This document shows, in pieces, positions 4,436 to 57,976 of a DNA stretch of 64,000 nucleotides. The translations under genes were made by a program, and so were the position numbers. The notes under the pieces are model-generated. The model was not told the DNA's origin, did not search any database, and saw only the letters and a list, made by a program, of their open reading frames with translations. How positions within the stretch are numbered: the first letter of the stretch is position 1; each line of letters begins with the position of its first letter. This DNA comes from Pseudomonadota bacterium (GTDB lineage: Bacteria; Pseudomonadota; Alphaproteobacteria; Caulobacterales; Caulobacteraceae): the NCBI GenBank assembly GCA_018241995.1, contig JAFECT010000004.1, forward strand, positions 310,001 to 374,000, given 5' to 3'.

Positions 4436-5188
4436 GTGGGCGACGCTCTCGCAGGCAAGTCGATCCTGATCACCGGCGCCGCGAGCGGCATCGGCAGGGC
4501 GGCGGCCGAGCTGTTCGCCGCCAACGGCGCGCGACTGACCCTGGCGGACATGGACGCGGACGGCGGCGAGGCGGTGGCCAAGGCGCTGGGCGCGCGCTTC
4601 ATCAAAGCCGATGTGACCCAGAGCGAGCAGGTCCGCGCCGCGGTGGCGCTCGCGGTCGAAGCCTACGGCCGCCTCGACGGCGCCTTCAACAACGCCGGCG
4701 TCTCACGCTACGGCGCGCCGCTGGCGCTGGGCGAGGAAGCCGAGTTCGACCGGGTCATGGCCATCAACGTCAAGGGCGTGTGGCTGTGCCTGAAGCACGA
4801 AATCGCCCAGATGCTCGGCCAGTCGCCCCACGGCGGCGCCATCGTCAACACCGCCTCGGTGGCCGGCCTCTACGGCGCCCCGATGATGGAGGCCTATGCC
4901 GCCTCCAAGCACGCGGTGGTCGGCCTGACCAAGACCGCCGCGCTCGAATACGCCAAGCTGGGCGTGCGCGTGAACAGCGTCTGCCCCGGCGTGATCCGCA
5001 CCCCGATGATGGACCAGGCCACCCAAGGCGACAGCGACGCCGAAAAGCGCATCGCCAAGGCCCACCCGATCGGCCGCGTCGGCGAGCCGGAAGAGATCGC
5101 GGCCGCCGCCATGTGGCTGCTGTCGGACGCGGCGTCGTTCGTGACGGGCCATCAGCTCGTGGTCGACGGCGGCATGACGGCGATCTGA
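4436..5188 (+). CDS. short-chain dehydrogenase/reductase (SDR)
   Basis: 250-residue classical SDR. Rossmann motif TGAASGIG near residue 14, acidic LADMDAD after beta-2 (favours NAD+ over NADP+), NNAGV, the catalytic Ser in VNTASVAGLYG, YAASK with Tyr and Lys, and the C-terminal VDGGM. All catalytic residues are present, so it should be an active oxidoreductase; the substrate cannot be read from sequence. GTG start, 4 bases after the preceding stop, so probably the third gene of a short operon. It ends just before an inverted-repeat mosaic that may terminate transcription. Confidence 0.9.
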   Translation: MGDALAGKSILITGAASGIGRAAAELFAANGARLTLADMDADGGEAVAKALGARFIKADVTQSEQVRAAVALAVEAYGRLDGAFNNAGVSRYGAPLALGEEAEFDRVMAINVKGVWLCLKHEIAQMLGQSPHGGAIVNTASVAGLYGAPMMEAYAASKHAVVGLTKTAALEYAKLGVRVNSVCPGVIRTPMMDQATQGDSDAEKRIAKAHPIGRVGEPEEIAAAAMWLLSDAASFVTGHQLVVDGGMTAI

Positions 5189-5190
5189 GG

Positions 5191-5397
5191 GATCCTTCCC
5201 CCCTTGCGGGGGAAGGATGGGCCCCGTTGCAAAGCAACGGGAGGATGGGGGGTCGCGAAGGGGGGTCAAATCCGGGCGCAGGAGCTACGCGTCAGAGGGT
5301 CACCGCGCCAAAGTTCTGACGCGCAGCGAGACCCCCCATCCTCCCATTTCGCCTGCGGCTCATGGGACCCTTCCTTCCCCCGCAAGGGGGGAAGGAC
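5191..5397. repeat. mosaic of nested inverted repeats between convergent genes
   Basis: The whole gap between the SDR and the NamZ-like gene is palindromic. Hairpin A: ATCCTTCCCCC (5192-5202) pairs with GGGGGAAGGAT (5208-5218). Hairpin B: CCCGTTGC (5223-5230) with GCAACGGG (5234-5241). Hairpin C: TCCTTCCCCC (5372-5381) with GGGGGAAGGA (5387-5396), a near copy of A. Outer pair: 16 bases at 5239-5254 match the inverse of 5330-5345 perfectly. The modular build suggests a dispersed intergenic palindrome family; it could also act as a two-way terminator. Confidence 0.85.
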
Positions 5398-6597
5398 TCA
5401 GTACAGCAGGCGCCTCCGCCGAACCTCTTCCCACGCGCGCTCATCCGGCACGGTCAGCGCGTCCAGGTCCCCCGGCGTCGCCGCCGGGTCGTCCACCCAC
5501 TCCCGCAGCAGCGGCGAGCCGTTGATCACGTGGATCGGCAGCTTGCCGTGCTCGTACTCGTACGGGAAATCGCGCCACAGGTCGTAGTCGGGATAGAGGC
5601 GCCGGATCGCCTTGAAGCCTAGCGACTGCAGCCGCCAGGGCTTGAACGCCTGGTGGTCGTAGCTCGGGTCCTCGGTGTGGATCTGCACGCCGTTGCAGAG
5701 CTTGCCGACGTGCTTGTGGAAGGTCGGCTCGAACCAGATGTCGCGCAGGCGGCAGCCGCCGAGCCACTGCGGCGCCAGGGCGTGCATCTCCTCGATCACG
5801 CGGCGCGCGTCGATGTCAGGGGCGCCGAACAGCTCCAGCGGGCGGGTGGTGCCGCGGCCTTCCGAAATGGTGGCGCCCTCGACCATCACCGTGCCGGCGT
5901 AGGCGCGGGCCATCCAGAGGTTCGCGGCGTTGGGGCTGGGATTGACCCAGGCGCGTTCACCCAGTGGCCAGCCGTAGCCGGGGCCTTCGTCCGGGCGCCA
6001 ACCCTCCATCTCGATGACGCGATAATCGAGGTCGAGCTTGAACTGCTCGATGAACCAGTGGCCGAGCTCGCCGAGTGTCAGGCCATGGCGCATCGGCATC
6101 GGCCCGGCGCCGACGAAGCTCTCCCAGCCGGGGCGCAGGGTCAGGCCCTCGACCGGGCGGCCCGCGGGGTTGGGCCGGTCCAGCACCCACACCGCCTTGC
6201 CGTGCTCGGCCGCGGCTTCCATCACATAGAGCAGGGTCGTGATGAAGGTGTAGATGCGGCAGCCCAGGTCCTGCAGGTCGACCAGCAGCACGTCGAAGGT
6301 GTGCATCGACTGGCCGGTTGGGCGGCGCACCTCGCCGTAGAGGCTGAACACCGGGATCCCGTGGGTCGGGTCGTTGAAATCCGGGCTCTCGACCATGTTG
6401 TCCTGCTTGTCGCCGCGCAGGCCGTGCTGGGGCCCGAAGGCCGCCGTCACGTTCAGGCCGGCCGCCACCAGGGCGTCAAGCGAATGGGTCAGGTCGGCTG
6501 TGACCGAGGCCGGGTGGGCGACGAGGCCGATGCGCTTGCCTTGAAGAGGCTTGCGCAGCTCAGGGTCGGCGAGCAGGCGGTCGAGGCCGAATTTCAT
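5398..6597 (-). CDS. NamZ-type exo-beta-N-acetylmuramidase (DUF1343, GH171)
   Basis: 399 residues of the DUF1343 family: GLDRLLAD, RIGLVAHPASV, FGPQHGLRGDKQDNM, PVFSLYG, LLVDLQDLGCRIYTFITT, LDRPNP, GHWFIEQF and WVNPSPNAANLW. The Bacillus member NamZ removes MurNAc from the non-reducing end of peptidoglycan fragments, so a role in cell wall turnover is likely. No clear signal peptide, so it may work on recycled cytoplasmic muropeptides. It overlaps the preceding DOMON-like gene by 4 bases (ATGA), indicating co-translation. Its 3' end abuts the inverted-repeat mosaic. Confidence 0.9.
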   Translation of the reverse strand: MKFGLDRLLADPELRKPLQGKRIGLVAHPASVTADLTHSLDALVAAGLNVTAAFGPQHGLRGDKQDNMVESPDFNDPTHGIPVFSLYGEVRRPTGQSMHTFDVLLVDLQDLGCRIYTFITTLLYVMEAAAEHGKAVWVLDRPNPAGRPVEGLTLRPGWESFVGAGPMPMRHGLTLGELGHWFIEQFKLDLDYRVIEMEGWRPDEGPGYGWPLGERAWVNPSPNAANLWMARAYAGTVMVEGATISEGRGTTRPLELFGAPDIDARRVIEEMHALAPQWLGGCRLRDIWFEPTFHKHVGKLCNGVQIHTEDPSYDHQAFKPWRLQSLGFKAIRRLYPDYDLWRDFPYEYEHGKLPIHVINGSPLLREWVDDPAATPGDLDALTVPDERAWEEVRRRRLLY

Positions 6598-20545: not shown

Positions 20546-20755
20546 TCAAACTGCCGGGGGCTTGATGATTGCAATGAAGGGGGCGTTGACACCCAAATCC
20601 CGACGTGTGGGTGTCGGGTCTCCTGCCGGCCATGTGAGCAGATCCATGGCGTTCGAAGGCAAAGCGTCGGCGTAGATGACTTCGGCGTCATCGTATTGGC
20701 CCACGACCTGGATCATGTCAGCCTTGCTCTGGAAGGCGTGAACTGTAAGTTTCAT
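20546..20755 (-). CDS. small unknown protein in lipoprotein cluster
   Basis: 69 residues beginning MKLTVHAFQSKADMI, with GGAGA-type ribosome binding (GGAGA 7 bases before the ATG). Predicted cytoplasmic or leaderless: no signal peptide or membrane segment, acidic middle (DDAEVIYADAL). Not recognised. It starts 12 bases after the stop of the preceding lipoprotein-like gene and shares its AT-richer composition, so it belongs to the same three-gene unit (20546-21983). Confidence 0.65.
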   Translation of the reverse strand: MKLTVHAFQSKADMIQVVGQYDDAEVIYADALPSNAMDLLTWPAGDPTPTRRDLGVNAPFIAIIKPPAV

Positions 20756-20766
20756 AGACAGTTCTC

Positions 20767-21615
20767 CTATTTGGACGCGCCGCAGGCGCTCAATATTGAT
20801 GCGATGTCGGCAGCGCGGTCGGGGTAGGCTCGCACAACGTTGGTATAGCCCGCCGCATCTTTTGCCTTGCGAAAGTCCTTAACAAAATCCGTGCTTTCGT
20901 CCTTACTCGCTAAGAGGTCCACTGGGCTCTGCGGCGCCTTCAGGACCGCGCATGCCGCCAATTGCGCACCCTTGGCGGTATTGTTCTGTCTTTCTATGAG
21001 CGCCTTGGAGTAAGCCCCCGCTAGTTCGGGATCGGCGCTGTCTCGAGCACTATTCAACAAGGCCGTCGCTACGCCGGGAGAGACGCCAGGTTTTGATACC
21101 GCTGCGGCTAAAGCGCCCGATTGAGCCGCTGCAGGCGCCTGAACAGACACGGATTGCATGACGGCCGGGTTCTTGGCGATTTCCTGGGCAGCGATGCCCG
21201 TAGCGAAGAATTGCGCAGTGCCGAATGTGGCCGAAACATCGCCCCCCTTGCCGGACAAGTTCGTGCCGAGGCTGGCGAAGACCGAGTAGGCGTCACTGCC
21301 CTGTGCTCCGTCAACACCCTTGTACTTGAGCTGGTCGAGGGGTGCCGGACACGGCTGCGCCTGAGCCAAGCCGCACAGACTGGGAACCCAGCCATCCCGC
21401 AGGCCCCGGCCGTTCGCGATCAGGGGCATCCACACCGCTTCGTCTCGATTGTAGCCGATCGACAGCTGCGGCGTCGCGGCGCTGGACGGTGCGGCGCTGA
21501 CGCTCAGGCCGATCTTTGTCGTCGTCCCAAAGATGAGCACGTCATTGTGCGGCTCGGCGCAGCCGCACAACAGTATCAGGGCGGCGGTTGCGGCCCAATG
21601 TCCATGAAAGCGCAT
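20767..21615 (-). CDS. predicted lipoprotein, FGTTTK-motif family of unknown function
   Basis: 282 residues. A short hydrophobic leader ends in LLCGC, a passable lipobox, so membrane attachment through Cys is likely. The mature start DVLIFGTTTKIGLSVS is followed by LSIGYNRDEAVWMPLI, a segment I believe recurs in uncharacterised proteobacterial lipoproteins. The C-terminal half is alanine/helix-rich (AYSKALIERQNNTAKGAQLAAC). The start is ATG at 21615; a longer frame upstream reads only over the previous gene. It overlaps that gene by 40 bases. Function unknown. Confidence 0.7.
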   Translation of the reverse strand: MRFHGHWAATAALILLCGCAEPHNDVLIFGTTTKIGLSVSAAPSSAATPQLSIGYNRDEAVWMPLIANGRGLRDGWVPSLCGLAQAQPCPAPLDQLKYKGVDGAQGSDAYSVFASLGTNLSGKGGDVSATFGTAQFFATGIAAQEIAKNPAVMQSVSVQAPAAAQSGALAAAVSKPGVSPGVATALLNSARDSADPELAGAYSKALIERQNNTAKGAQLAACAVLKAPQSPVDLLASKDESTDFVKDFRKAKDAAGYTNVVRAYPDRAADIASILSACGASK

Positions 21616-21983
21616 AGCTCTCCCTTCCCGTTTGTCGCCGTCGCGATCCAGGCGGTGGCTTGGTCGAGTTGTTCCTCGGTCCGGACGTGAAAAATTACGC
21701 GGCAGTCCGCAGGGACGGTCTCCCGCAGCGTGGAACGCCACCCAACGCCGAGTCCAGTTCCCTCTGACGGCGATGAGGCTTCGCCCCAAATGCCGAGCAC
21801 CCGCACCCGAACTTGGCGGACGGCTACCCCTGAGGCGTCGTCGCGTTCAACGCGGACGTAGCCGAAATAGTGCGAGGCGCTCTTACCGGGCCCGATTTGC
21901 GCACAGCTGATCGCGAGCAGCGGCCAGGCCGCAGCCACGACCAAACGACAGGCGTTCCTGCGCACGCGAGCAAAATCGAACAT
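21576..21983 (-). CDS. small predicted lipoprotein of unknown function
   Basis: 135 residues with a hydrophobic leader (LVVAAAWPLLAISC) ending in a cysteine that could be lipidated, then a compact beta-rich domain: HYFGYVRVERDD, VRVRVLGIWG, GLGVGWRSTLRETVPADC and VIFHVRTEEQL. Two further cysteines (in PADC and ELC) could pair. Not recognised. First gene of the AT-richer cluster; its last 40 bases overlap the FGTTTK lipoprotein in another frame, pointing to coupled expression and perhaps a complex of the two. Confidence 0.65.
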   Translation of the reverse strand: MFDFARVRRNACRLVVAAAWPLLAISCAQIGPGKSASHYFGYVRVERDDASGVAVRQVRVRVLGIWGEASSPSEGTGLGVGWRSTLRETVPADCRVIFHVRTEEQLDQATAWIATATNGKGELCAFMDIGPQPPP

Positions 21984-22101
21984 TGCCGCCCCCCGAGGGC
22001 GCCGCAGTCAGCGGGCTGCATCATTCTATCGTAAAAGATGTGGCGTGGCGAGACACGTTAAGCAGTTGTGGTCGAGACGAAATTCCCTGTGTAAGCCCGG
22101 A

Positions 22102-39248: not shown

Positions 39249-39566
39249 ATGAAGCTGTTCGAAATCCGCATGAAGGTCGCGCCGGGCCCCGACGCGCCCC
39301 CAGGCGTGACAGAGACCTTCGCCTGCTGCTTCGCCTCCGCCGCGGATTACGGTCAGGCCGTCGGCAATGCGCTGGGCTATGCGCGCGACAGCGGTGTCGA
39401 GGTGCTGGACGTGCTGAGCCCGGTGCGCGAACTGGAGCCCGAGCGCTGGGGCGAGTACGTCGCCGTGACCTGGCCCGAGTACGCCGCGAACCTGCCGACC
39501 CAGGCCGAGATCGGCGCCCTGGTCGAAAGCCAGAGCCTGTTCTTCAGTCCGTTCGTAGCGCTTTGA
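39249..39566 (+). CDS. small conserved-looking hypothetical after accC
   Basis: 105 residues from ATG 39249 (a GTG two codons earlier is possible). Reads KLFEIRMKVAPGPDAPPGV, a TETFACCFASAADY segment and GVEVLDVLSPVRELEPERWGEYV. Leaderless, acidic, no membrane helix; the two adjacent cysteines are its only odd residues. I do not recognise the family. Spacing to accC suggests co-transcription. Confidence 0.7.
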   Translation: MKLFEIRMKVAPGPDAPPGVTETFACCFASAADYGQAVGNALGYARDSGVEVLDVLSPVRELEPERWGEYVAVTWPEYAANLPTQAEIGALVESQSLFFSPFVAL

Positions 39567-39607
39567 GGCGACCTGACGCGCCGGTCGCGCTGTGATAGGT
39601 TCGAGTC

Positions 39608-39781
39608 ATGACCGCCAAGCCCGCCGCAGCGCCTGACCGGGACGAGGAAGCCTTCAAGGCCGCCGTCGAAGCCGGTATCGAGGCCGCCGATCAAGGCCGC
39701 ACCATTCCCTACGAACGCGTGCGAAAGTGGCTGCTGTCCTGGGGTTCGGACAAGGAACTTCCGCCTCCCGAATGCCCGTAG
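39608..39781 (+). CDS. antitoxin of a ParE/RelE-type module
   Basis: 57 residues, MTAKPAAAPDRDEEAF at the start, then EAGIEAADQGRTIPYERVRKWLLSWGSDKELPPP. The pattern GIEAADxGRxxPxExVxxWLxSWG is typical of short antitoxins that pair with RelE/ParE toxins; part of it resembles a ribbon-helix-helix family tail. Its stop lies inside the toxin gene (10-base overlap, 39772-39781), the normal antitoxin-first arrangement. It should bind and mask the toxin and repress its own promoter. Confidence 0.8.
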   Translation: MTAKPAAAPDRDEEAFKAAVEAGIEAADQGRTIPYERVRKWLLSWGSDKELPPPECP

Positions 39782-40044
39782 TCTTTGCCGACGAAGCTCA
39801 ACGGGACCTGGTCGCCATCCGCGCCTACATCGGCGAGGAAAGTCCGCTTGCAGCCTCACGAGTAGCCATACAGATCGTCGCGGCCTGCGATAGGCTGGAG
39901 CACCTGCCTGAGCGAGGACGGCCTGGCCTAGTGCCAGGAACGCGTGAACTCACTGCCCTCTGGCCCTATGTCATCGTCTATCGTGTCAGGGCCGACGTGG
40001 TGGAAATCCTTCGCATTTGGCACGGAGCGCAGGACCGCTGGTGA
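39772..40044 (+). CDS. RelE/ParE-family toxin
   Basis: 90 residues from ATG 39772: [49 protein letters not shown] and the C-terminal [25 protein letters not shown]. This is the ParE/RelE fold with conserved basic residues in the GRP and [10 protein letters not shown] segments. ParE members inhibit gyrase and RelE members cut mRNA; the tail looks more ParE-like. Both genes sit between the accC unit and aat, a likely recent arrival in an otherwise housekeeping block. Confidence 0.88.
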
Positions 40045-48407: not shown

Positions 48408-49064
48408 TTGGGCCGCCAGCTACGCCTAGACCTCCAGAGCGCCATACCGCAGACGCGCGACGATTTCGTCGTGTCGCCGGCCAACGAGCGTGCGGTCGCG
48501 ATGCTGGACACGTGGCCGAGCAGCCAGGGCGGGGTGTTGGCCCTGGTCGGGCCGGAGGGTTCCGGCAAGAGCCACCTCGCCTCCAACTGGGCCGAGCGCA
48601 CCGGAGCCGAGTTCCTGCAGGACGTGGCGGCGGACCTGGCCGACCTGCCCTCGCTCGAAGGCCGGACGGTCGCCATCGACGACGCCGACCGCGTCGATGA
48701 CGAGACCCTGTTTCACCTGATCAACCAGGCGCACATGCCCGGCGGCGGACTGCTCTTGATCTCGCGCCGGCGCCCCGCCGCGTGGAGTGCGGAACTGCCC
48801 GACCTGCGTTCGCGGCTGGACGCCATCCGCGTGATCGAGCTGGGGTCGCCCGACGACGTCGTGCTGTGGGGCGTGCTGGACCGCTTCTTCCGCCAGCGCT
48901 CGATCACGCCCTCGCCCGATCTGCTTGAATATCTGGTGCGGCGCATCGAACGCTCGGTGCCGCACGCGCGCGAGATCGTGGCGCGCATGGCCGCCGACCA
49001 CCGCCCGCCAACCAGGGCGCTGGCGCGCGAGCTGCTGGAGCAGGACGGCGGCGAGAACGACTAG
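48408..49064 (+). CDS. hdaA: HdaA, regulatory inactivator of DnaA (AAA+)
   Basis: About 218 residues using a TTG at 48408; a GTG at 48357 would add 17. Either way the N-terminus carries GRQLRLDL, matching the QL(S/D)LPL-type sliding-clamp binding motif of Hda. AAA+ part: [16 protein letters not shown] (Walker A), [18 protein letters not shown] (Walker B), [12 protein letters not shown] (sensor 1) and [10 protein letters not shown] near the C-terminus (sensor 2). Clamp-bound Hda stimulates ATP hydrolysis by DnaA and limits replication initiation. No robust ribosome site favours either start. Followed by ppk. Confidence 0.88.
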
Positions 49065-56056: not shown

Positions 56057-56677
56057 ATGACGCGCAAGAAGGTCGGGGTGCTGATCTCGGGCCGCGGCTC
56101 GAACATGCAGGCCTTGTGTGAGGCGGCGAAAGACGCCGCCTACCCGGCAGAGATCGTGCTGGTGGCCTCCAACAGGTCAGACGCCGGGGGGCTGGAGATC
56201 GCGCGCGGGTACGGCGCCGAGACCTTTGCCCTGGACCACCGCCCGTTCGGCAAGGACCGCGAGGCGCACGAGCGCGAGATGGACGCGGCCCTGCGCGCTC
56301 ACGGCGTCGAGATCGTCGCCCTGGCCGGCTATATGCGCGTGCTGTCGCCCTGGCTGGTGGCGCAGTGGCAAGGCCGGATGATCAACATCCACCCCTCGCT
56401 GCTGCCGCTGTTTCCGGGCCTCGACACCCACAAGCGCGCGCTCGAAGCCGGGGTGAAGCTGCACGGCTGCACCGTGCACCTGGTCTCCGACGGCGTGGAC
56501 GAAGGCCCGATCCTGGGCCAGGCGGCCGTGCCCGTGCTGGCCGGCGACGACGAGGCGGCCCTGGCGGCGCGGGTGCTGAAGGTGGAGCACCGGCTCTATC
56601 CGGCTTGTCTGGCCGCGCTGGCGTCGGGCAAGCATTGGGTCGAGACGGACGCGGCGGCGAGCCTGATCAGCGTCTAG
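56057..56677 (+). CDS. purN: phosphoribosylglycinamide formyltransferase
   Basis: 206 residues. KVGVLISGRGSNMQAL at the start, VALAGYMRVLSPW, the catalytic NIHPSLLPLFPGLDTHKRALEAG with its His, and TVHLVSDGVDEGPILGQ with the catalytic Asp. Transfers formyl from 10-formyl-THF to GAR. Immediately follows purM and ends overlapping by 11 bases the 3' end of a convergent hypothetical gene. Confidence 0.97.
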   Translation: MTRKKVGVLISGRGSNMQALCEAAKDAAYPAEIVLVASNRSDAGGLEIARGYGAETFALDHRPFGKDREAHEREMDAALRAHGVEIVALAGYMRVLSPWLVAQWQGRMINIHPSLLPLFPGLDTHKRALEAGVKLHGCTVHLVSDGVDEGPILGQAAVPVLAGDDEAALAARVLKVEHRLYPACLAALASGKHWVETDAAASLISV

Positions 56678-57122
56678 GAGGCCACCACAGCCACAGGGCT
56701 GCATCATCGCGCCCCCAGATCACATAGTCACCTTCGCCAGTCCGCATGTCGCTGACCGCTGCGCGCAACGCCTCAAGCGCCTCGTCGCCTGCGCTCAGCC
56801 TCGCGTGGCCATCCTCGTCTGCATCAATCGACCAGGTATCCCCAGGCCAGTCGCGCGAATAGCTCAGCGTCAGGCTAGCCGCAGGCCGCTTGGGTTCGGT
56901 GTTGCCCCGAAAGGGTTCAGGGAGGTCGCGTTGCTCGACTGCAATCTTCAAGCGACCTGGATAGCGCGCAGCCTGCAGCAGGTTCAGCGCTTCATCGAGA
57001 CAATCGCAGCCTTCCGCGTCCGCCGCAAAATGCCAGCCCTTCAGACTGGCGCGGTGACTTTTCGGATAGCGCCACAAATAGATGCGACCCCACGGGCGCC
57101 AGCGCTCCAAAGCCGGGTCCAC
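56667..57122 (-). CDS. hypothetical acidic protein
   Basis: 151 residues from a GTG at 57122 (an ATG at 57155 would overlap the esterase gene). Tryptophan-rich: PWGRIYLWRYPKSHRASLKGWHFAA, DLPEPFRGNTEP, SYSRDWPGDTWSIDADEDG, YVIWGRDDAALWLWW. No signal peptide. Not recognised; a paired cysteine in GCDC may bind something. It lies 5 bases after the esterase gene on the same strand, so the two are probably co-transcribed. Lacks internal features to assign function. Confidence 0.55.
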   Translation of the reverse strand: MDPALERWRPWGRIYLWRYPKSHRASLKGWHFAADAEGCDCLDEALNLLQAARYPGRLKIAVEQRDLPEPFRGNTEPKRPAASLTLSYSRDWPGDTWSIDADEDGHARLSAGDEALEALRAAVSDMRTGEGDYVIWGRDDAALWLWWPPRR

Positions 57123-57127
57123 GTCCC

Positions 57128-57976
57128 CTACCCCACCGGCGCCGCGAACAGCCACCGGATCGCCTTGATCGCCGCCGGGTCGTAGATACCTGCGTGCTTC
57201 TCCTGGGGCATGGGATCGAAGCGCCAGTTCAGGCCCTTCGGCGCCTGGGCCTTCAGGGTGTCGGCCAGCAGATAGGTGCCTGCCTCTAGCCCGCCGCCGT
57301 CGCCGGCCTCAGCAAAGTACAGCGACTTGCCGGCATAGTTCCCTGCCTTCAGCCGCTCGGCAGCCGACTTGGCGAGACTTTGTTTGTCCCACCACAGGCT
57401 GGGGCTCATGGCGATGTAGTCGTCGAACATCTGGGGTCGGGTCAGGAAGGTCTCGACCACGAACAGCCCCGCGAGCGACTCGCCCATCAGCGCGGTGGGA
57501 CCAGTGGTGCGGTAACGCGCCTTGATCCAGGGCTTCAGCTCCTCGCCGATGAAGTCGCGGAACTTGGCGGAGCCCCCTCCGGTCGGGACCAGCTTGTGGT
57601 CGCGGGGGTCGCTCGAGGGATGGGTCAGGTCATGGCGCCGGTCGATGCCCTCGATGCCGACCACGATGACGTCCTGCAGCAGGCCATTCGCGGCGCCGAC
57701 ATAGAACAGGCCCGTGGCGTGATGGAAGTCTTCGTGTTCGCCGCCGTCGAGCAGCACCACCACCGGATAGGCCTTGGTCGACGTCTCATAGCCGTCCGGC
57801 AGCCAGACATTGATGCGCCGGGTCTGACCGAGGATGCGCGAGTCCAGGGTGTAGGAGCGCCCGATCACGATGGGCCGGCCCTCCTGACGCGCGGAGTCGT
57901 CGCCCGCCGGGGCGCCGGCAAGCGCGGGGCCGGCCAAGGCGCAAGCCGCGAACAGGGAAATCAGAAACCGACGCAT
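57128..57976 (-). CDS. exported alpha/beta-hydrolase, Fes/IroE-like esterase
   Basis: 282 residues with a signal peptide (FLISLFAACALAGPALAG). INVWLPDGYETSTKAYPVVVLLDGGEHEDFHHA, IVVGIEGIDRRHDLTHPSSDP, nucleophile elbow GESLAGLFV, and PMPQEKHAGIY near the end. This is the putative esterase fold of siderophore hydrolases (Fes, IroE) and S-formylglutathione hydrolase-like proteins. Serine is present, so it is probably active in the periplasm; substrate unknown. ATG 57976 begins the leader. Confidence 0.85.
   Translation of the reverse strand: MRRFLISLFAACALAGPALAGAPAGDDSARQEGRPIVIGRSYTLDSRILGQTRRINVWLPDGYETSTKAYPVVVLLDGGEHEDFHHATGLFYVGAANGLLQDVIVVGIEGIDRRHDLTHPSSDPRDHKLVPTGGGSAKFRDFIGEELKPWIKARYRTTGPTALMGESLAGLFVVETFLTRPQMFDDYIAMSPSLWWDKQSLAKSAAERLKAGNYAGKSLYFAEAGDGGGLEAGTYLLADTLKAQAPKGLNWRFDPMPQEKHAGIYDPAAIKAIRWLFAAPVG

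What the first reader, a model, noticed from the sequence alone, without database searches (positions are those of the whole stretch)
20546..21983. AT-richer three-gene lipoprotein cluster of unknown function
Two predicted lipoproteins whose genes overlap by 40 bases and a 69-residue leaderless partner lie between a TonB-type receptor and prfB, in a stretch visibly poorer in GC than its flanks. The FGTTTK lipoprotein segment recalls an uncharacterised recurring family. Overlap plus co-direction suggests a complex. This is the best candidate in the window for acquired genes with a new envelope role.
Basis: partly seen in the sequence, partly recalled or inferred. Interest (0 to 1): 0.55.

Follow-up and report, generated by a model that had tools for sequence, protein, structure and literature searches.

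The report
Undescribed three-gene outer-membrane lipoprotein module
This stretch holds a real, rare, probably acquired set of three genes for two lipid-anchored envelope proteins and a small partner that keep together in distantly related bacteria, sometimes next to enzymes that cut cell walls or membranes, and that no family library we could search names.

Summary
Genes A (135 aa), B (282 aa) and C (69 aa) lie where stated; A and B overlap by 40 bases; GC3 is 0.72, 0.71 and 0.67 against 0.88 for window genes. The reading largely holds too. Profile searches found the same A-B pair in 24 genomes of Alpha-, Beta- and Gammaproteobacteria and Desulfobacteraceae, plus one inverted relative. A adjoined B in 24 of 24, genes overlapped in 22, and a C-sized ORF followed in 20. 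In one set of 199 genomes an independent A search hit clearly in exactly the seven with B. Both carry a lipobox Cys in 24 of 24, never Asp at +2 (outer-membrane sorting expected). Family libraries and PDB sequences name none of them. It is rare (2 of 199 family members) and absent from the plasmid, phage and viral collections searched. New here: 8 of 25 loci have leaderless peptidoglycan hydrolases or phospholipases nearby, in five as one tight gene run, of five enzyme families. I propose an obligate outer-membrane lipoprotein complex partnering interchangeable envelope hydrolases. Existence is well supported; function is inferred. The window copy has no neighbouring hydrolase, and C homology there is unproven by sequence.

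The parts
21576..21983 (-). Gene A: small lipoprotein, 135 aa; lipobox Cys27; conserved Gly64, Gly81 and Cys pair Cys94/Cys124
   Evidence: Translation; conservation of C27, G64, G81, C94, C124 in 24 of 24; model pLDDT 82.3, pTM 0.60: three long strands then strand-helix-strand
20767..21615 (-). Gene B: lipoprotein, 282 aa; lipobox Cys19; two conserved hairpin-like blocks and a variable helical tail
   Evidence: Translation; C19, P64, D108, S111, V112, F137, T139, G140, A142, A143 invariant in 24 of 24; model poor, pLDDT 58.3
21576..21615 (-). 40-base overlap of the end of A with the start of B
   Evidence: overlap in 22 of 24 loci, in the same relative frame in 21 of those 22
21418..21549 (-).
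   Evidence: Alignment; residues 23-66 of B
21181..21300 (-). B block 2 (DAYSVFASLG...TAQFFATGIAAQ)
   Evidence: Alignment; residues 106-145 of B
20546..20755 (-). Gene C: 69 aa, no signal sequence; small cytoplasmic partner by position
   Evidence: Translation; C-like ORF in 20 of 24 loci against 43 of 218 stand-in genes; its own sequence does not beat shuffles (15 of 196 shuffles score as high)
22023..22051 (-). Promoter-like match 40 bases before A (weak)
   Evidence: 1 found, 0.3 expected; a consensus match only

Best explanation
A and B are two outer-membrane lipoproteins made in a coupled way and working as one obligate complex on the periplasmic face of the outer membrane, with C as a small cytoplasmic helper or regulator. 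The module is horizontally acquired and self-contained. Its most likely role is as the constant outer-membrane part of a system whose variable part is a leaderless envelope-cutting enzyme (peptidoglycan hydrolase or phospholipase), encoded in the same operon in some hosts and elsewhere, or lost, in others such as this one; the pair would dock, gate or restrain that enzyme at the outer membrane. Shown: the genes, lipoboxes, obligate pairing, overlap, low GC3, rarity, and hydrolase genes in the same tight gene run in five lineages. Inferred: outer-membrane location, physical complex, role of C, and the functional link with hydrolases.
For: A-B adjacency in 24 of 24 genomes and, inverted, in one more. 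A-profile search of 199 genomes hits clearly only the 7 with B. One B per genome in 18 of 18. Overlap in 22 of 24, 21 of 22 in one frame relation. Lipobox Cys in 24 of 24 for both, no Asp at +2 in 48 proteins. A folds with fair confidence. Hydrolases or phospholipases within 2.6 kb in 8 of 25 loci, in five of them on the same strand in a run with gaps of at most 39 bases: patatin in L010, Tle1-like in L011, M15_4 in L019, GH19 in L038, M15_3 in L043. Genome-wide, 3 of 10 GH19, 2 of 8 Tle1-like and 1 of 5 M15_4 copies lie within 4 kb of the module, 0.066 expected in all.
Against: 17 of 25 loci, the window among them, show no such enzyme in the flank read (flanks unequal, 0.85 to 8 kb). The three enzyme families counted genome-wide were chosen after they were seen near the module, and the GH19 trio come from one family of bacteria, so the chance figures overstate. 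GH24, Amidase_3, M15_3 and patatin were not counted genome-wide. No physical interaction, location or phenotype is shown. B was not modelled reliably.
Confidence: 0.42

Rival explanations
1. Immunity module: A and/or B are outer-membrane lipoproteins that protect the cell against periplasm-acting toxins, as Tli proteins do for Tle phospholipases; stand-alone copies such as this one are orphan immunity genes.
For: Known Tli proteins are outer-membrane lipoproteins encoded next to Tle (PMC9860674, passages read). Tle1-like genes stand near A in L010 and L011. Sporadic occurrence and low GC3 fit.
Against: The same A-B pair stands beside chemically unrelated enzymes (GH19, M15, amidase, phospholipases), which one inhibitor pair is unlikely to fit; two co-conserved lipoproteins are more than an immunity gene needs.
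Confidence: 0.2
2. Outer-membrane step of a domesticated lysis or type 10-like release cassette: a small membrane protein (holin-like), a leaderless hydrolase and an overlapping lipoprotein pair in the place of spanins.
For: Hydrolases are leaderless by hydropathy; small proteins with 2-4 hydrophobic segments abut A in L015 and L037 and lie two genes before it in L011; overlapping pair of envelope proteins.
Against: No i-spanin-like protein: both A and B have lipoboxes. No relative in phage, plasmid or viral collections. The three small membrane proteins are not alike by BLAST (best E 0.19). The window has none.
Confidence: 0.15
3. Envelope anti-phage module, blocking adsorption or DNA entry at the outer membrane.
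For: Rare, sporadic, low GC3; downstream genes in L042 match HEC-01A (E 6e-146) and in L010 an AAA protein matching PDC-M37B/DolB and a weak Cap4-type nuclease.
Against: A, B and C match nothing in PADLOC; only 2 of 25 loci showed such neighbours, only selected neighbours were scanned, and no genome-wide rate was taken.
Confidence: 0.12
4. An acquired islet with some niche role and no link to hydrolases; the enzyme neighbours are coincidence.
For: Most loci have ordinary housekeeping neighbours.
Against: Five operon-like links with five enzyme families are hard to call coincidence.
Confidence: 0.11

Closest known systems
Tle-Tli phospholipase effector and lipoprotein immunity pairs (type VI secretion)
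   Same: Outer-membrane lipoproteins encoded beside Tle1-like phospholipases in two of 25 loci
   Different: Two obligate lipoproteins rather than one; other loci carry peptidoglycan hydrolases or none; A and B match no named family in any library searched
Type 10 secretion / phage lysis cassettes (holin, peptidoglycan hydrolase, spanins; chiWXYZ)
   Same: Leaderless peptidoglycan hydrolase, in places a small membrane protein, and an overlapping pair of envelope genes
   Different: Both overlapping products have lipoboxes, so there is no inner-membrane spanin; no relative found in phages; the window copy has no hydrolase or holin beside it
LptE (outer-membrane lipoprotein of LPS export)
   Same: Small lipoprotein; LptE chains recur among the top Foldseek rows for A
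   Different: E 0.2-0.9 and TM about 0.2 only, not above unrelated chains

Membership tests
Tle-Tli effector-immunity pair | Encoded next to a cognate Tle phospholipase | tested here: not met
   For this locus: G000 has no PF09994 match and no such neighbour in the window; a Tle1-like neighbour is present in L010 and L011 only
Tle-Tli effector-immunity pair | Immunity protein binds and inhibits its effector | not testable with these tools
   Needs biochemistry
Tle-Tli effector-immunity pair | T6SS apparatus in the genome | not tested
   No T6SS search was run
Type 10 secretion / lysis cassette | Holin plus peptidoglycan hydrolase in the cluster (core as stated in PMC13284979, passages) | tested here: not met
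   Window neighbours are prfB, an NTF2-like ORF, a PBP1A-like gene and a TonB receptor (names other than the receptor by eye); the one M15_4 gene of G000 is on another contig
Two-component spanin (Rz/Rz1 type) | One inner-membrane protein with a TM segment plus one lipoprotein | tested here: not met
   Lipobox Cys in A and in B in 24 of 24
Known Pfam / NCBIfam / PHROGs / PADLOC families | Profile match over cut-off | tested here: not met
   window proteins; relatives; stray single-member hits only
Proteins of solved structure | Sequence or fold match | tested here: inconclusive
   Sequence: none convincing for A and B. Fold of A: best E 0.21, best Z 4.0. B model too poor to search; C not searched or modelled

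The most novel reading that the evidence does not exclude
A-B-C is the constant chassis of an undescribed polymorphic envelope system: two outer-membrane lipoproteins plus a small cytoplasmic protein to which different lineages attach different leaderless lytic enzymes (GH19, M15, amidase, phospholipases), forming a lysis, release or attack apparatus of a kind separate from type 6 and type 10 systems.
Probability: 0.2. Interest if true: 0.82.

Novelty: categorically new. Interest (0 to 1): 0.58.

Why it matters
An obligate lipoprotein pair conserved across proteobacterial classes, with unnamed protein families, is a new handle on the outer membrane. If it partners interchangeable wall- and lipid-cutting enzymes, it would show how leaderless hydrolases are handled at the outer membrane, a step that is poorly understood in lysis and type 10 release. 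The module is small, single copy and dispensable (most relatives lack it), so it can be deleted and expressed easily. The rating 'categorically new' rests on the absence of any named family or described module in the sources searched, not on a proven mechanism.

Tried and rejected
A single-protein scan of genome contigs found no relative; the four-row profile found 16 loci, three of them genomes already seen. L005 is a C-terminal match without lipobox or motif and was dropped. G740 (L025/L035/L043) has both genes but in the order B-A with a doubled B; it was left out of the 24-row counts and named as the 25th locus. Scans of viral contigs with A1 and A6 matched 18 and 16 stretches but no relative.

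Foldseek of A gave nothing below E 0.2; LptE chains at ranks 1, 6, 12, 18 and 31 were not accepted (TM about 0.2). VIA-align gave Z of at most 4.0, with transcription pre-initiation and TFIIA chains first; families not listed there are not excluded. The B model (pLDDT 58) was not searched.

Homology of A and B to each other: with signal peptides, hhalign gives probability 70.6; with them cut away only 2.6 (score 18.4; 0 of 100 column shuffles as high, reversed B 13.5). A shared hairpin motif is possible, not shown.

The three small membrane proteins upstream of A are not alike by BLAST. Motif strings FGTTTK, AQFFATG, VFGTNT, GYKRQEA and EAVWMPL occur in no paper of the library. No empty site could be defined: the TonB receptor was not found beside prfB in any of 29 relatives read, so that flank is variable. 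No tRNA in the window; of 24 loci scanned two hold a tRNA gene, and one of these abuts the module, in L017.

Full report
What is there. On the minus strand between a prfB gene and a TonB receptor lie A (21983-21576), B (21615-20767) and C (20755-20546). A and B each have a lipobox; C has no signal sequence. Good Shine-Dalgarno-like stretches precede B and C (read).

Host. The genome has a same-family member, G085, whose contig 34 (182,853 bases) matches in length the Caulobacter zeae record of L008. I infer Caulobacteraceae. prfB is in 31 of 31 genomes searched, the window's own included. In the 29 relatives whose flank was read, a PBP1A-like gene lies upstream in 24, and A, B, C and the TonB receptor are found in none.

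No named family. Window A, B and C have no Pfam match up to E 1, none above noise in NCBIfam or PHROGs, and none in PADLOC. The relatives have none either: Pfam 18 A, 18 B and 16 C sequences (single-member stray hits, best a collagen-like tail at E 0.0013), NCBIfam 24 A and 24 B (one stray hit at 0.0084). PDB sequence searches with A and B gave nothing convincing.

The pair recurs. B alone found 2 of 199 family members and 4 of 385 class members, one of them spurious; the window's own genome is one of the hits in each. All three new true hits had an A-like gene directly upstream, overlapping B. A profile of these found 16 named loci, three of them the genomes already seen: Alphaproteobacteria (Caulobacter, Phenylobacterium, Sphingomonas, Hyphomonas and others), a Lysobacterales MAG, Saccharophagus, Leptothrix and a Desulfobacteraceae MAG. 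Phylum-wide it found 3 of 398, and 3 of 249 with the larger profile, the own genome included. In the family of L020's genome it found 7 of 199. In all, 24 distinct genomes carry A directly before B. All-against-all BLAST of ORFs from the window, 16 loci and L024 put all 18 A and all 18 B into two families. The only other family spanning more than 4 of the 18 loci was an antisense frame inside B. A 25th, G740 (L043), has B then A (hhalign E 2.8e-11 and 1.1e-8).

Independent test of pairing. The A profile, searched in the same family sample of 199 genomes as the B profile, hit 9: the 7 with B at E 3.2e-20 or better, each next to B, and two at E 0.006-0.009 that I take as noise and did not read. 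B is single copy in 18 of 18 genomes. The genes overlap in 22 of 24 loci, by 4 to 49 bases, 21 of the 22 in the same relative frame; L019 has a gap of 51 and L031 of 1. Some starts were chosen by me, so lengths of overlap are approximate.

C. A same-strand ATG ORF of 55-106 aa begins within -16 to +60 bases of the B stop in 20 of 24 loci, against 43 of 218 stand-in genes from the same loci. The four without are L017, L024, L031 and L032. Left-out tests: 13 of 20 C sequences beat all their shuffles; the window's C does not (15 of 196 shuffles as high). C is therefore a positional member; its homology in the window is unproven by sequence.

Protein features. Lipobox Cys in 24 of 24 A and 24 of 24 B; no Asp at +2 in 48, which by the E. 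coli Lol rule (recalled) predicts the outer membrane. A keeps G64, G81, C94 and C124 in 24 of 24, the cysteines suggesting a disulfide. A's model: three long strands, then strand-helix-strand (pLDDT 82.3, pTM 0.60). B keeps P64, D108, S111, V112, F137, T139, G140, A142, A143 in two blocks that look like two hairpins; its model is poor. L031 and L032 carry a long insert between the blocks.

Neighbours. Peptidoglycan hydrolases or phospholipases lie within 2.6 kb in 8 of 25 loci: L010 (Tle1-like, patatin), L011 (Tle1-like), L017 (Amidase_3+SH3, divergent), L019 (M15_4; also C92 and 3D proteins), L036 (GH24 and GH19), L037 (GH19+PG_binding), L038 (GH19, just below the cut-off at 23.4 of 25.5 bits) and L043 (M15_3). 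In five they are in one co-directional run with gaps of at most 39 bases: L010 patatin, L011 Tle1-like, L019, L038 and L043. None of these enzymes shows an N-terminal hydrophobic segment by a 19-residue hydropathy scan from the ORF start used (the 3D protein of L019 has a signal-like stretch further in, by eye). Genome-wide copies within 4 kb of the module: GH19 3 of 10, Tle1-like 2 of 8, M15_4 1 of 5 (each over 25 genomes); expected by random placement 0.066 together, P about 5e-11, or 6e-7 counting the GH19 trio once. These P values are too small, because the families were picked after being seen and the genomes are related. The remaining 17 loci, the window included, show none in the flank read.

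Mobility. No relative in plasmids (B proteins of the window, L024, L032, L015 and L043), phages (B of the window, L024, L010, L043) or viral contigs. So acquisition is by routes not seen here; no tRNA or long flanking repeat marks the window copy.

Mechanism. I commit to an outer-membrane A-B complex that serves as the constant part of envelope-hydrolase systems (0.42). Immunity, lysis/release and anti-phage readings remain (0.2, 0.15, 0.12). Tli proteins are known outer-membrane lipoproteins encoded by Tle genes (PMC9860674, passages); type 10 systems need a holin and a hydrolase, with spanins optional (PMC13284979, passages). The window copy meets neither definition.

Not in print, as far as searched: motif strings gave no paper; the library lacks most subscription journals. 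The other papers were seen as search listings only.

Noticed in passing
L010:2234-11699: Run of nine co-directional genes with short gaps: Tle1-like hydrolase, 156 aa ORF, patatin, 158 aa ORF, A, B, C, ClpB/AAA-type ATPase (PADLOC PDC-M37B/DolB) and a protein with a weak Cap4-nuclease match.
   Followed up: partly
L043 (reverse strand), 4661-6194: M15_3 peptidase followed by a doubled B-like protein (two ATG-x-AA type motifs) and an A-like lipoprotein, order reversed; a JAMM/MPN-like ORF (by eye) follows.
   Followed up: partly
L042:9122-10207: AAA_21 protein matching PADLOC HEC-01A (E 6e-146) just downstream of a diverged A-B pair.
   Followed up: no
L017:6963-7039: tRNA-Met gene lies 32 bases after the end of B on the other strand, a possible integration boundary.
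   Followed up: no
window 39377-39859, 48426-49001, 56667-57155: Other putative ORFs with low GC3 (0.74, 0.74, 0.69), possible further acquired genes or false gene calls.
   Followed up: no
window A/B proteins, 20767-21983: A and B may share a short hairpin motif (G-x-x ... G-[WY]-x-R ... P); the mature-profile score beats 100 of 100 column shuffles but the probability is only 2.6.
   Followed up: partly
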